Shown here: in pieces, positions 4,071 to 9,620 of the stretch
How the letters are laid out: each line of letters opens with the position of its first letter
Position numbering within the stretch: the stretch's first letter is position 1
Assembly (NCBI RefSeq): GCF_040436345.1
Contig: NC_133218.1
Location: 28,292,710-28,356,709 of the forward strand
Length of the DNA: 64,000 nt
DNA from: Pagrus major
Taxonomy: Eukaryota; Chordata; Actinopteri; Spariformes; Sparidae
Direction: 5' to 3'
Notes under the pieces: generated by a model
What the model was told of the DNA's origin: nothing
Database searches by the model: none
What the model saw: the letters and a program-made list of their open reading frames with translations, nothing else
Position numbers and translations under genes: made by a program

Positions 4071-4407
4071 TCAGTGGCGGTGCTGCATGAGTTTGGCAGC
4101 TGAGGATTTTGTATCGCCCGGTCTGTTCACCGCATGTGTGTTGTGCACGCTGTGTGTTTTTGACGTCCCTTTTCTGAGCTGCATGCAAGCATCTCTCTTC
4201 GTGCTCAGCTCCATGCTTTCAGCCATGTTAGTGTCGATCGTTGTGTGGTTTGTTTTGATGGAGGTGTGCGCGAATGAGCTGTCTTTGCGGTGGCTGCGTG
4301 TCATGGTGACTCTGAAGGTGTTTGTGTGCTGCAGTTCCATCTTGTCCTCCTCCGACACTTTGATGAAGGGACACCAGGCAAACGCATGACGGAAACCAGC
4401 ACGGAAC
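4071..4407 (-). CDS. tacr2: tacr2 coding exon 7 (cytoplasmic tail)
   Basis: 337 nt ending at TGA 4073-4071. Acceptor CAG at 4410-4408. It encodes the 111-residue tail from [17 protein letters not shown], with a membrane-proximal Cys that could be palmitoylated and many Ser/Thr that could be GRK targets. It ends AAKLMQHRH. Confidence 0.9.
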
Positions 4408-7400
4408 CTGCAGATAGAGGAAAAAACAGTTTTTTGGGGTTTTTTTGCTTTGAGTTTTGGGATTGTGAAACTTTCTGGTTGTGAATGTGCCTCTTACCTT
4501 TGGTTTAGACAGCAGTAAATGATCGGGTTGTACATGGTCGAACTCATCGCTAACCAGAATATGGTCAGATACACCTGAGAAGGAAAGGAAACATGATGCC
4601 CATTAACGAAGAAGTCAGACTAAAAAGAATTAATAACAGGCAGAAAGGCAGCTGCTAACCTGTTGAATGTAATGCTGTTTATAAATGTCTCTGTTAAATG
4701 ATCCCAGTATGAAGTAGATGTGATAGGGCAACCAGCACAGGGCAAAGGTCACCACCACGACAACCATCATCTTCACCACCTATGATAAATCACAGAGCAA
4801 GAAAAAGTAAGACAAAAGTCTAAACTCTGAGTTCAGCTAAGTTGTTATCTGAGCATGTCGATCATAGTGAGAGTGCAACACATTAAAAAACTACCCAACT
4901 ACCTTTCTCTTGGCTGTAATCTGGCTGTGGTAATGTTCTGTCGCCTCTCCGGGGATGTGTCCACCCCACAGCGTTCGGCCAACTAAACTGTAGGTCACCA
5001 GCATCACCAGTAGAGGGAGCAAGTAGATCAGCAGTATCACTGCAAACTGGTAACTGCAGGGAGAGAAAGAGAGAGTAAAAAACTGGACACTCCAATAACA
5101 ATATTTGAATATATGGCATACTTAGAGGGGATTTACTAACATGAACATGAAGACATGATCATAGATCTTTATTAGAGACATCAAGCTTGCAATAACAAGT
5201 GTCAGTATGTCATCAGTAAATATTTATAGGTGCTGATGTTTCCTGTGCACGAGGTGTGAAGCAGTCCTTGAAAAGAAAGGATAACCTGTTGCTTGATATT
5301 ATTGATCTGCTGTGTTGTAACTGTCACTGTCGGTCATTCTATCTCTGTTTTTTTAATTGATTTTGTTATTTCACCTCAGCCAGTGATGGAATGTGACTAA
5401 GTATATTTACTCAAGTACTGCAATTTTGAGGTATTTGTACTTCACTTACTTTACTTGAGTATTTCTATTTCTAAAAAAAAAACTTCTGAATCCAATCCAT
5501 CAACATAGAAATGCTTTTATTTGTATTTCATTTATTTGCAGAAAATTACTGTTGAAAATTACTGATTACTTAAGTACATTTAATACCAGATACTTTTACC
5601 ATAGCAACACTTCACGTATGAGTACTTTTTACAACACTGACCTTAGTTGATGTGTTCCTCCGTAATCGTCAGGCCAGTCGACCATGCACACGGTCCTGGG
5701 GTAGTAAAATCTCGTCACACTGTAGTAGCACTGAGGGAAAGCCAGGCAGACGGCCACTATCCAAATCACGGCAATCACAACCTTTGTAGAGGTGGAGGAG
5801 AGGCGGGGCTTCAGAGGGTGGATGATGGCCATGTACCTGAAAGAGGACAAAAAGTTTTGTTCATTCATATCTGTCTGATGTTTATCTCACAGGAAACATA
5901 AAGAAACCTGCGCGACTCAATAAAGGCTTTCAAGAGTGAATGACTGAATCATGAAAGAGATCCATTAACTGCAATGAATATATGTGTGGATATATACCAT
6001 ATAAATGATCATGGATAACCTTTATTCATTAGAGATGTTAAGTGTATTATACTATTAACAATATAAGAAATAGTTCCTCCTGGTAAGTCTGATGGCAGCT
6101 GTGACTGAGATAAAGATATTGTTTCAACTAAGGTGGAATATTTTTAACAAATGTCAGTAATCATGGTGACCATGGCAACCTGTCGAGACTCTTACGCAAT
6201 CAACTTATACTCATTTGCTTTACAACATTTCTCAGTGTTGTCACCGATATAGTCAAATGATTCAACCCTGAGTATGAATCGTTCATTTGAATTATTCAGG
6301 GCCAACAGCGAGCGTGTACTTCGTTTCATGGATAAGAGATTTGCATTAGAGAAGCAATTTCTAAGTAAATTTTTTTTATGTATTCTGCTGTGTTGTATTC
6401 TGGCCTCAAATCAAGGTTAGTGGAGCGAGAAAAGGGAAATTTTTAATAAATGAAAAATGCATTATACGTAAATGTAAATACATAAATAAAGAGATTAGAT
6501 TGTTGTATCAGTAATTCTGGTTCTGTCGTATAAAGCAAACTATTTTCTTTCTTGCTTAGCCCTCAGTTCTCATCTTCATCCTTTTTAACCTGTTGGACCA
6601 AGTTACACCTGACCCACCTCTAACAGGTGGGTAGAACATGTAGGCCTGTTGCTGCAATATAAAACAATCATACATCGTGCGCCATTTTATGAATGCAGAT
6701 CATGTTTTTCAATTTATCTGTGTAATTAATTGTTTTTCCTGCTTGCTGCAGCAGGTGATGACACCAAAGAAAGCCACACAAACTGATGATTCTACAAATT
6801 GGAGACTAATGATGAGGAATTATTGAGTTATAAGCAGATTTACACCTGGTATGATCTCAGCATATGGCTAATTCATCACTACATCTGTCCTGAGCCACAA
6901 AGAGAGCCAGATATGATATATGTCATGCACACACATGAGAGTGTAATGAAACGCTCCAGTGACTCTCCCCTCTGGAACAACTGCATTGCAGTGTACATAC
7001 AGTTTGAGTTTACTGGGTGCGCCTACGCCATCAAATCCAGCAGTGCATCCTATCTTTATGAAGTTTATAATGTTCAGTCTGAGCTGACATTGTCTTTTTG
7101 AGACCATAATTAGTGATGCTGAAGTGGAATGAATTATATTAACATTCTGCCTCCCTCATGTATGTAAATGGAGGCAGATAAAACCTTTGAGATGTCTGTG
7201 AATGTAATGCAGTTCAATACAACCTCTAGTATAAAAGTGAAAAGTATTCCTCTGAAGGACATTTCTGTGCAAAGCTAACTGAACCTGATTTTTTGTCTCT
7301 TTGTCTGTCTGTCTGTTTGTGTCTTTCTACGTCTTCTACTTCATTTCGTCTTGATAGGTTGAAATCAGTCTCATGATGTTGGGAATGATCCCCTCGAATG

Positions 7401-9339
7401 CATTAAAATTAAAGTAACAAGCCTGTTTTGAAAATGTAAGGAGTAGAAAGTACAGATATTTGTGTTAGATACCTGAAAAATCTACTTTCTACAGTGGTAT
7501 AGTAAGTATTTGTACCTTGTTACTCCGCCCCTCTGGTATTAGCATCAAAATATTCTATTATAAGTATAAGTAAAAAGCACTAAAAGTATTAATTTCGGAT
7601 TCATAGTAATGGAGCTTGAGTGTTTGCTGTATATACCACCCAGTAGATGGTGTGATTTCACCAAAGGGTCAATAAAGTTTTATCTTTATCCATAATAATA
7701 CCAAATAATGAATTTGTTGATTCTCTTTTGTATTATTATTATCATAAATATGTAAGGTAACTAAAGCTGTAGTGGAGTAAAAAGCACAATATCTCCCACT
7801 GAAATAGTGAAGTAGAAGTAGAAAGTAAAGTAAAATCAAAATACTCGCTACAAGTACCGCAAAATTGTACATAAGTCTGTTGTATTTTACTGCAATACAC
7901 TGTAACTCAGGATATATCTCATACTGTGTGTTAAGTACAGTTTCAGACTTAGAACAGACTGGCCACTCATGCTCCAGTGAGCATTAATGATGACATCTGT
8001 ATCTCCGCTGCTTGTTGACTCACATCTCCTTCATGGAGCGTTTTCCTCTGTATTGACTGAACAGTGGCTGCAGCTGACATCAAGTGATGGATCTCAATGA
8101 GCGGCAATTTCACTGAGAGTCGCTGTTCAGCCTCAAACAACAAACACCTGTCTGACGAGGAAGCTCTGAGTGGGATCAGCGACGAATTGTGATGAAGAAC
8201 ATTGTATTAGACCAGCTGTTATCTGCCACTGAAGTGACAAGATGTTTATCAACCAGAATTTGACCACATTAATACACCATCATTGAAATCCATACAGAAA
8301 TAGACATTAATATAGCACATACAGTGTAGTAAGTAGCAGTTAAGAGGTTCACAAGGTGGTTTCCGTACTGCTGAGTTGACAGATTCAGTAAGTAGTCGTC
8401 CATCCTGTTTTGGGTGCATAATGCAGCTCCTAAATGGGTGTTGCAGGAGATGAGCTTCAGTCATCCCATTAGTGTCTAATTGCTGCTACAAAACAGTTTC
8501 ACATGTGCTGACATGTTCATTTTGGACGAGAGCATCAGCTTAACTGTATTGTGATTCTACTTTTAAGGAACATTTAATTACGCTTAAAGAATCATGGTCT
8601 GCAAGAAGAGAGCTTTCTCACCTGTCCACAGCGATGGCAGCCATCGAGTATATTGATGAAAACATGGCCGTGATGGGGAAGAAGTTCTGGAATCTGCAGT
8701 AGCCCAGGCCGAAGTACCAGTCGTTGTGAAGTGCGTACACAAAGTTAAAAAGAGTGTTGAATGACGCCATGGAAACGTCAGAGAAGGCCAGGTTGACGAT
8801 GAAGTAGTTTGTTACAGTCCTCATGCGTCTGTGAGCGAGAATAATCCAGATCACCGTGACGTTCCCAGTGATGGACACCAGGATGATGAGGGAGTAGGCT
8901 ATAGCCCACAGAGCCACCTGAGAGAGGAAGAGGAGAGGAAGAGGAGAGGAGAGGAGGAAAACACAATAAATGTCATACATAACAAAGGACGTCTCCAAAC
9001 CCTAAATAGAAGCAAACTCTTCTTGAGTTTGAGACCATTTTATTGTATGTGAACTCTATTTTAAGACGTGCTGCCACCAAACATCTGAACGTGAGTTTAA
9101 CATCTGATCCTGCCCCCTTCAATTTTTTTTTTGCCACTAGTGAGCCATATGCTCACCATAGCTTGCCATATTTAAACATTAACTTGTTAGATATTCTTAT
9201 GCTTTGCTGCAGAGTATCTGGGACCAAAAAATTAAAAGCCTAAAACTCTAAATCCTCTTTTATGACATTCACAGACTGAGTGTAGTTTGGTTTAAACATC
9301 ATGTAGCTGAAAAACATTAAACACATTTCTTTCTTTCGT

Positions 9340-9402
<63 letters not shown>

Positions 9403-9620
9403 CATGCTTCCTCTCCACTCAGAGTGAACTGGCTCTGACTCGGACCAGTCTAATTTCTGGTCCTGGTCCGGCTGTACTCTCCCACCTGCCAGTCGGGCTG
9501 CTGGAACTGATTCACGGTCGTCTCGTTGTCGTCCTCCAGCCAGTCGCCGGTCACTGATAAAGGGAACGAGGTGGCCTCCATGTCTCGTTCAATGTGTTGA
9601 ACCAGACTCTCTGCGTCCAT
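4071..9620 (-). CDS. tacr2: Tachykinin receptor 2 (neurokinin-2 / substance K receptor)
   Basis: Complete class A GPCR of 436 aa on seven coding exons: 9620-9486, 8917-8622, 5836-5642, 5053-4903, 4779-4660, 4574-4498 and 4407-4071 (1311 nt with stop). It is a plasma-membrane receptor for tachykinin peptides (neurokinin A in mammals), signalling mainly through Gq. Visible marks are an N-glycosylation sequon NET at residues 32-34, NQFQQPDWQ just before TM1, a Cys in GYCRF before TM3 that pairs with ECL2 TVCMVDW, DRY at 143-145, CWLPYH in TM6 (274-279) and NPIIY in TM7 (315-319). The tail starts [15 protein letters not shown]. The following EEDKMEL...RSHRKDS resembles the TACR2 tail (KEDKLEL) more than those of TACR1 or TACR3, and gene order also says TACR2. 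Start ATG 9620-9618 has A at -3 and G at +4. The gene has two more introns than the standard five-exon layout. Confidence 0.93.
4498..4574 (-). CDS. tacr2: tacr2 coding exon 6 (TM7, NPIIY)
   Basis: 77 nt: [20 protein letters not shown] then CCLNQ and the first two bases of Arg. Acceptor CTCAG at 4579-4575, donor GT at 4497-4496. It is parted from the previous exon by an 85-bp intron that is not a multiple of three, so it has to be spliced out for the receptor to be intact. Confidence 0.93.
4660..4779 (-). CDS. tacr2: tacr2 coding exon 5 (TM6 and ECL3)
   Basis: 120 nt, 40 codons: [20 protein letters not shown] (TM6) through [15 protein letters not shown]. Acceptor AG at 4781-4780, donor GT at 4659-4658, phase 0 at CAG|GT. 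It adds with the next exon to 197 nt, the size of the single exon 4 in mammalian tachykinin receptors. Confidence 0.93.
4903..5053 (-). CDS. tacr2: tacr2 coding exon 4 (TM5, ICL3)
   Basis: 151 nt, the conserved family size. The frame gives TM5 ([18 protein letters not shown]), then [14 protein letters not shown] and HSQITAKRK of intracellular loop 3. Acceptor CAG at 5056-5054, donor GT at 4902-4901. Confidence 0.94.
5381..5639. mobile_element. hAT-like miniature element in tacr2 intron 3
   Basis: 259 bp. The ends are imperfect inverted repeats: the left starts CAGTGATGGAATG and the right, reverse-complemented, starts CAGTGTTGTAAAA. The interior (ACTCAAGTACTGCAATTTTG, TTTACTTGAGTATTTC) is a sequence I recognise as a very common teleost repeat. 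The flanks are 8-bp near-repeats, ACCTCAGC at 5373-5380 and ACCTTAGT at 5640-5647 (6 of 8, both differences C/T). An 8-bp target duplication and CAGTG ends fit a non-autonomous hAT element. No transposase is present. Confidence 0.7.
5642..5836 (-). CDS. tacr2: tacr2 coding exon 3 (DRY to ECL2)
   Basis: 195 nt, the size I remember for exon 2 of mammalian tachykinin receptors. It completes [15 protein letters not shown] (ICL2), TM4 and part of ECL2 with [10 protein letters not shown]. Donor is CTAAG|GTCAGT with GT at 5641-5640, directly against a transposon-like element. Confidence 0.94.
7430..7600. repeat. Fragment of a teleost interspersed repeat
   Basis: Stretches such as AATGTAAGGAGTAGAAAGTA and AAGTATAAGTAAAAAGCACT are typical of the same broad group of teleost hAT-like repeats as the element at 5381-5639. 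The borders are uncertain and it lies in the first long tacr2 intron. Confidence 0.45.
7750..7885. repeat. Fragment of a teleost interspersed repeat, opposite orientation
   Basis: TAACTAAAGCTGTAGTGGAG, then AAAGCACAATATCTCCCACT and CAAAATTGTACATAAGT follow, block by block, the consensus I remember for the teleost repeat that ends with ...CAAGTACCTCAAAATTGTAC. It is degraded, with no clean ends. Confidence 0.5.
8622..8917 (-). CDS. tacr2: tacr2 coding exon 2 (TM1-TM3)
   Basis: 296 nt. Acceptor CAG at 8920-8918 follows a long pyrimidine tract (the GGA-rich stretch on the plus strand). The frame runs VALWAIAYS (TM1), through [18 protein letters not shown] (TM2) and [15 protein letters not shown] (TM3) to GAC AG, donor GT at 8621-8620, phase 2. 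The next exon completes the Arg of DRY. Confidence 0.93.
9326..9402. repeat. Compound (TTTC)n-(GTCT)n microsatellite
   Basis: A TTTC run with one interruption (TCGTT) changes at about 9371 into a GTCT run. It lies inside the extra intron between tacr2 exons 1 and 2. Confidence 0.95.
9486..9620 (-). CDS. tacr2: tacr2 coding exon 1 (N-terminal extracellular domain)
   Basis: Encodes 45 residues from ATG 9620-9618 to PDWQ. It ends CAG|GTGGGA with phase 0 and GT at 9485-9484. In the tachykinin receptors I remember, the matching NQFxQPxWQ is in the same exon as TM1, so the boundary here is unusual. The frame is open a further seven codons upstream without an ATG. A CAG at 9644-9642 might be an acceptor for an upstream 5'UTR exon. 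Confidence 0.85.

What the first reader, a model, noticed from the sequence alone, without database searches (positions are those of the whole stretch)
5373..5647. hAT-like element inserted exactly at a splice donor, with the target duplication spanning the exon-intron border
The element 5381-5639 is flanked by ACCTCAGC and ACCTTAGT. On the gene strand the right copy is ACTAAG|GT, the last six bases of exon 3 plus the donor GT, while the left copy is GCTGAG|GT followed by GAAA. So the insertion seems to have duplicated the 5' splice site. The exon-side copy is used with donor bases +3 to +6 (CAGT) supplied by the element's own terminus, and what may be the ancestral donor survives 267 bp inside the intron. 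A transposon end that can complete a splice site would be well tolerated at this spot.
Basis: partly seen in the sequence, partly recalled or inferred. Interest (0 to 1): 0.72.

Follow-up and report, generated by a model that had tools for sequence, protein, structure and literature searches.

The report
Transposon end completes splice site
In a fish neuropeptide-receptor gene a small old jumping gene landed exactly on an exon-intron border, so that the border now appears twice and the copy that seems to be in use takes half of its signal from the jumping gene; a second gene in the same genome shows the same arrangement.

Summary
Observation confirmed. A 259-bp non-autonomous hAT element (5381-5639) sits between 8-bp flanks matching at 6 of 8. 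Relatives in the same 786-Mb genome (2,292 left ends) confirm both ends; two full copies have 8/8 target duplications (L075, L105), and the right end is 18/20 identical to the Tol2 end. The host is an open seven-exon tachykinin receptor gene (436 codons, probably tacr2). The duplicated 8 bp are the last six bases of exon 3 plus the donor GT. Only the exon-side GT keeps the frame. The working donor AAG|GTCAGT thus most likely has GT from the duplication and CAGT from the element. Four paralogues have a donor at the same place and phase, with introns beginning GTGAG, like the inner copy (GTGAAA). A recheck found a second case: in L099 a semaphorin exon ends VCK|GT directly before the same element end, where 10 of 10 paralogues also splice. 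Of 17 conserved ends with AGGT 0-6 bases away, 2 of 4 at distance 0 and 0 of 13 others adjoin a recognised exon (post hoc, about 0.04). No orthologue or RNA was available. It resembles known transposon-supplied splice sites (Ds, introners), but an existing vertebrate donor is replaced and no intron is gained.

The parts
5381..5639 (.). non-autonomous Tol2-type hAT element, 259 bp
   Evidence: ends confirmed by relatives; right end 18/20 to the Tol2 3' end
5640..5647 (-). exon-side copy of the 8-bp target: ACTAAG|GT (last six bases of exon 3 plus donor GT)
5373..5380 (-). intron-side copy of the 8-bp target: GCTGAG|GT
   Evidence: 6/8 to the other copy, both differences at third codon positions and synonymous
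5636..5641 (-). inferred working 5' splice site GTCAGT: +1,+2 from the target copy, +3 to +6 from the element end
5369..5374 (-). inferred ancestral donor GTGAAA, now inside the intron
   Evidence: use gives a stop at once
5642..5836 (-). exon 3 of the tachykinin receptor gene
4903..5053 (-). exon 4, joined in frame to exon 3
4071..9620 (-). tachykinin receptor gene, probably tacr2: coding exons 9620-9486, 8917-8622, 5836-5642, 5053-4903, 4779-4660, 4574-4498, 4407-4071
   Evidence: open for 436 codons with GT-AG at six introns; PDB matches; Pfam 7tm_1

Best explanation
A non-autonomous Tol2-type hAT element inserted across the exon 3 / intron 3 border of a fish tachykinin receptor gene. Shown by sequence: the element and its ends, the flanking 8-bp repeat that spans the border, an open frame only with the outer donor, and the paralogues' splice position. 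Inferred: both target copies kept AG|GT. The exon-side copy is now the working donor and reads GTCAGT, GT from the duplication and CAGT from the element; +4 A, +5 G and +6 T can pair with U1 and offset the poor +3 C. The old donor lies unused 267 bp inside the enlarged intron, and the element is removed with the intron. The protein is unchanged, so the insertion was tolerated. The same end does the same job in a semaphorin gene (L099), where the duplication is no longer recognisable.
For: Ends and duplications of relatives; Tol2 end. Frame and gene model; ungapped alignment to NK1R across the junction. Four paralogues with a phase-2 donor at the homologous place, introns beginning GTGAGT (two) and GTGAGA (two). 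Outer donor third of the gene's six by a recalled matrix, 4.43 bits; the register with two intron bases in the duplication scores best of those keeping GT. L099: exon ...RVARVCK|GT then the element's right arm, matched to Sema4D up to that lysine, 10 of 10 semaphorin paralogues with GT after that lysine.
Against: No orthologous empty site and no RNA. The target copies differ at 2 of 8. Window and relatives are only 58-73% alike over full length, though the ends agree. The strength scores rest on a recalled matrix and U1 end. In L099 the left end is damaged and the flank matches by eye at 3 of 8, so its duplication is not shown. GTCAGT also occurs without the element (L163). A site inside the element, AAAGTAAGT, scores higher (5.12) than the outer donor.
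Confidence: 0.87

Rival explanations
1. Nested splicing: because the duplication spans AG|GT, the element plus one target copy is itself bounded by GT...AG (5641 to 5375). It may be spliced out first, restoring ACTAAG|GTGAAA, which then joins exon 4 (introner-like, twin-intron or recursive splicing).
For: The anatomy is exactly that; the joined product restores the presumed old border. Introners that take both splice sites from the insertion site are described (PMC9860276 passages).
Against: The inner acceptor is poor: GCTGAG, 65% pyrimidine at -20 to -4 against 82% and 94% at the acceptors of exons 3 and 4. One-step splicing from the outer donor already gives the protein. L099 has no recognisable inner AG|GT copy.
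Confidence: 0.07
2. Inner donor (GT at 5374) or the element's own donor-like site (GT at 5449) is used in part of the transcripts, giving a longer exon 3.
For: Scores of 2.04 and 5.12 bits lie within the range of the gene's other donors, 1.83-6.89.
Against: Such transcripts meet an in-frame stop right after the border...HQLRSVL*, so they cannot make the receptor; a minor or regulatory form at most.
Confidence: 0.15
3. Chance abutment: the intron started GTCAGT before, or an old element came to lie at the border by deletion, and the 6/8 repeat is coincidence.
For: Two mismatches in eight; GTCAGT donors occur without the element (L163); duplications are not kept in most copies read.
Against: Complete family end at the exact base, 6/8 flanks at 0.65% chance, paralogue introns beginning GTGA like the inner flank.
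Confidence: 0.04

Closest known systems
Tol2 (medaka hAT) and related non-autonomous elements in teleosts
   Same: right end 18/20, 8-bp duplications in relatives, CAG...CTG ends
   Different: 259 bp, no transposase; left end only 12/20 to the Tol2 5' end; no autonomous parent identified
Maize Ds elements acting as introns or splice sites
   Same: a hAT element whose terminus takes part in splicing (titles in the reference list of PMC3260210; details recalled)
   Different: Ds cases are insertions into exons with a new intron; here an existing intron's donor is replaced
Introners with splice sites taken from target duplications (PMC9860276)
   Same: splice sites taken entirely or partly from the target duplication of a DNA element (passages)
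   Different: introners create many new introns and that paper reports no such pattern in vertebrates; here two old intron positions are kept

Membership tests
hAT superfamily, non-autonomous member | 8-bp target site duplication | tested here: met
   Relatives L075 and L105 8/8, L035 and L066 7/8; window copy 6/8; not kept in most other copies read
hAT superfamily, non-autonomous member | short terminal inverted repeats CAG...CTG | tested here: met
   CAGTG/CACTG; 9 of 12 between the ends, 10 of 20 over 20 bases
hAT superfamily, non-autonomous member | mobilised by a hAT transposase with matching ends | tested here: inconclusive
   hAT transposase domains abound in the genome (150 scored matches of 1151 candidates); none was tied to these ends
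Tol2-type hAT | terminal sequence | tested here: met
   right end 18/20 to the Tol2 3' end, next best in the window 14/20; left end only 12/20 to the Tol2 5' end
Introner | the element creates a new intron | tested here: not met
   four tachykinin receptor paralogues have the intron at this place without the element; likewise 10 of 10 semaphorin paralogues for L099
Tachykinin receptor gene (probably tacr2) | sequence match to tachykinin receptors and open frame | tested here: met
   NK3R 372, NK1R 356, NK2R 338 bits; 436 codons open. Subtype not settled: C-terminal part NK2R 151.7 against NK3R 150.1

The most novel reading that the evidence does not exclude
Because hAT ends begin with CAG, an insertion whose 8-bp target ends on a donor GT always leaves GT|CAG on the exon side, with a good +4 A and +5 G. 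That register would be splice-neutral for the whole superfamily, so vertebrate genomes should carry an excess of hAT insertions exactly there, each replacing the donor's inner half. The two cases here (tachykinin receptor, semaphorin) would be its first examples.
Probability: 0.3. Interest if true: 0.6.

Novelty: new variant of a known kind. Interest (0 to 1): 0.43.

Why it matters
It shows how a DNA transposon can land on a splice donor without harm: the target duplication keeps the GT and the transposon's conserved first bases supply the rest. It yields a simple genome-wide test, a register bias of hAT insertions at donors, linking transposon end sequence to intron evolution in vertebrates. 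With 2,292 counted left ends and about 200,000 donors (my assumption) in 786 Mb, roughly 0.6 insertions in this register are expected by chance before selection, and I found two with this one end by partial searches, so an excess is possible but not shown.

Tried and rejected
Relatives in viral contigs (32 loci): matches of at most a few tens of bases, taken as chance. Phage collection: no match. Rfam: nothing at gathering threshold. Paper searches for the family's sequence gave primers and unrelated papers. Searches for an earlier report of this exact kind returned no such case in their listings; the library lacks most subscription papers, and the Ds papers of 1988, 1991 and 1994 are not held.

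Rejected: 'the insertion strengthened the donor'. The joined empty site scores 2.92 against 4.43 now, but the paralogues have G at +5, so the inner site may have decayed.

Corrected on rechecking: I had concluded that no second case exists. One search had scored L099 only 15/20 because of two extra A; searches show it to be one. This raised the novel case (0.2 to 0.3), the main reading (0.85 to 0.87) and interest (0.36 to 0.43). Also read: 30 of 216 sites with AGGT plus right end at <=1 mismatch (control 164); 20 stretches; L138 and L139; 17 of 17 exact sites. L089 (MA3 domain) ends CAG|GTCAGTG but has no element end after it; L116 and L113 likewise have open frames before such a GT and no element end. 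Exon recognition was by open frame, Pfam and PDB; five open frames of the gap 1-6 sites had no Pfam match, and the longest had no PDB match. Short exons may be missed.

One search scored several gene donors one base out of register; one search replaces it; its list of GT sites in exon 3 and intron 3 is unaffected. In one search the context of donor 1 was typed wrongly; one search corrects it.

Full report
Observation. The window holds ACCTCAGC at 5373-5380, an element from 5381 (CAGTGATGG) to 5639 (CAACACTG), and ACCTTAGT at 5640-5647. Random 8-mers of the window match at >=6/8 in 0.65% of draws. CAGTG..CACTG pairs of 80-1000 bp with flanks >=6/8 occur twice (0.74 per dinucleotide shuffle), and with TIRs >=9/12 once, here (0.1 per shuffle).

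The element. The window is part of a 786-Mb genome in 25 contigs. Of 45 non-self matches to the element, 36 start at query 8 or 9, where 9 is base 5381 (25 at 9, 11 at 8). Of 16 non-self matches to the right arm, 7 stop at query 79-81, where 80 is base 5639, and 9 stop further inside. Full-length relatives share both ends but are only 58-73% alike over their length (7 relatives). One search listed 36 end pairings, wrong ones included; 5 of 36 keep >=6/8 of the duplication (L075 8/8, L035 and L066 7/8, L046 and L069 6/8); L105 adds 8/8. So the family makes 8-bp duplications, and the window's 6/8 is among the better kept. A 34-base left-end pattern with <=3 mismatches has 2,292 matches, reversed control 0. 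The right end is 18/20 identical to the Tol2 3' primer printed in PMC4818426 (passages), next best in the window 14/20; the left end is 12/20 to the Tol2 5' end. The 34-base left arm differs from the majority of 29 copies by 5.9%, against a mean of 4.8% for those copies.

The gene. On the minus strand seven exons (9620-9486, 8917-8622, 5836-5642, 5053-4903, 4779-4660, 4574-4498, 4407 to a stop at 4071) join into 436 open codons with GT-AG at six introns. PDB matches are NK3R 372, NK1R 356, NK2R 338 bits; the C-terminal part is best to NK2R, 151.7 against 150.1 for NK3R. tacr2 is my reading, not settled. PMC3151243 (passages) states that TACR1-3 keep their DRY intron from fishes to mammals; the passages seen do not treat intron 3.

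Which donor works. Exon 3 ends CAA CTA AG and exon 4 starts T TAC, giving L-S-Y with no gap against NK1R. The inner GT gives ...HQLRSVL*. Four paralogues (L081-L084) have a phase-2 donor here; L081 and L082 have exactly as many residues from WP to the border as the window gene, L083 and L084 two fewer. Their introns begin GTGAGT (two) and GTGAGA (two). So the outer site is at the conserved place, and the inner copy GTGAAA resembles the family's donor more than GTCAGT does.

The two differences between the target copies are A/G at the third positions of CAA/CAG and CTA/CTG, synonymous in the exon. This is what change in the exon copy under coding constraint would look like; with two changes it is weak (1 in 28 for random placement among eight positions, my arithmetic).

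Splice strength. With a recalled donor matrix and recalled U1 5' end, the outer site scores 4.43 bits and -8.4 kcal/mol, third of the gene's six donors (6.89, 6.85, 4.43, 4.33, 3.32, 1.83). The joined empty site scores 2.92, the present inner site 2.04, and modelled insertion registers peak at two intron bases in the duplication, where CAGT fills +3 to +6; with three bases the score falls to -0.01. A site inside the element, AAAGTAAGT (GT at 5449), scores 5.12 but lies behind the stop.

A second case. Rechecking the loci showed that L099 (C20:23679052-23679210, minus strand) holds an exon reading ...DDDKIYFFFTERSQEQIAYPSQTKVSRVARVCK whose last codons TGC AAG are followed by GT and then the element's right arm CAGTGTTGTAAAAAAAGTACTCAAAAGTCATACTTGAG. 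Pfam gave nothing on this 53-residue piece; PDB gave semaphorin-4D, E 1.3e-5, aligned to that lysine. All 10 other genome matches run to the same lysine and 10 of 10 have GT right after it. Their introns vary; one (L163) reads GTCAGT without the element, so GTCAGT alone is no sign of it. In L099 the left end, about 320 bp on, is damaged and the following 8 bases match the target at 3 of 8 by eye, so the duplication is not shown there.

Is it a tendency? Exact patterns with AGGT 0-6 bases before a conserved end gave 7 right-end and 10 left-end sites, reversed controls 0. At distance 0 there are 4 (window, L092, L099, L136), of which 2 adjoin a recognised exon; at distances 1-6 there are 13, of which 0 do. 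The one-sided Fisher value is 6/136 = 0.044 (my arithmetic), post hoc, on small numbers, and exon recognition was limited. Other sites read (30 of 216, 20, 2) gave no further case. By copy number and an assumed 200,000 donors about 0.6 insertions in this register are expected before selection.

Rivals. The duplicated AG|GT makes the element a GT...AG unit whose removal would restore the old border, as in introners that take both splice sites from the insertion site (PMC9860276 passages). The inner acceptor is poor (65% pyrimidine against 82% and 94%); I give 0.07. Partial use of inner sites (0.15) could coexist with the main reading and would yield stops. Chance abutment gets 0.04.

Known or new. 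Splice sites from hAT ends are known from maize Ds (titles in the reference list of PMC3260210; details recalled), and splice sites taken wholly or partly from target duplications from introners. The paper searches listed no case of this exact kind, in a library that lacks most subscription journals. Here existing vertebrate donors are split and completed by the element's end and no intron is gained. I file it as a new variant of a known kind, of moderate interest; the register rule is what deserves a test.

Noticed in passing
window 4071-9620 (-): The receptor gene model has seven coding exons; mammalian tachykinin receptor genes have five (recalled), so the introns after WQ (phase 0) and after LNQ (phase 2) may be fish additions or differences of annotation.
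   Followed up: no
window 5441-5449 (-), inside the element: AAAGTAAGT is the best donor-like site in exon 3 plus intron 3 (5.12 bits by a recalled matrix); it lies behind the in-frame stop.
   Followed up: partly
window about 7430-7870: AAGTA/TACTT-rich stretch in intron 2 that looks by eye like a remnant of another hAT element.
   Followed up: no
L036, L059, L062: Several left-end matches within a few hundred bases in one locus, suggesting nested or tandem insertions of the family.
   Followed up: no
own genome, e.g. C9:76825, C10:15753418, C18:12689098, C21:522623, C22:4173785: hAT dimerisation domains with identical scores and frame lengths on many contigs, suggesting recent spread or duplicated blocks.
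   Followed up: no
L163 (C12:19081795-19081895): A semaphorin paralogue uses GTCAGT as donor without the element, so this donor type also arises on its own.
   Followed up: yes
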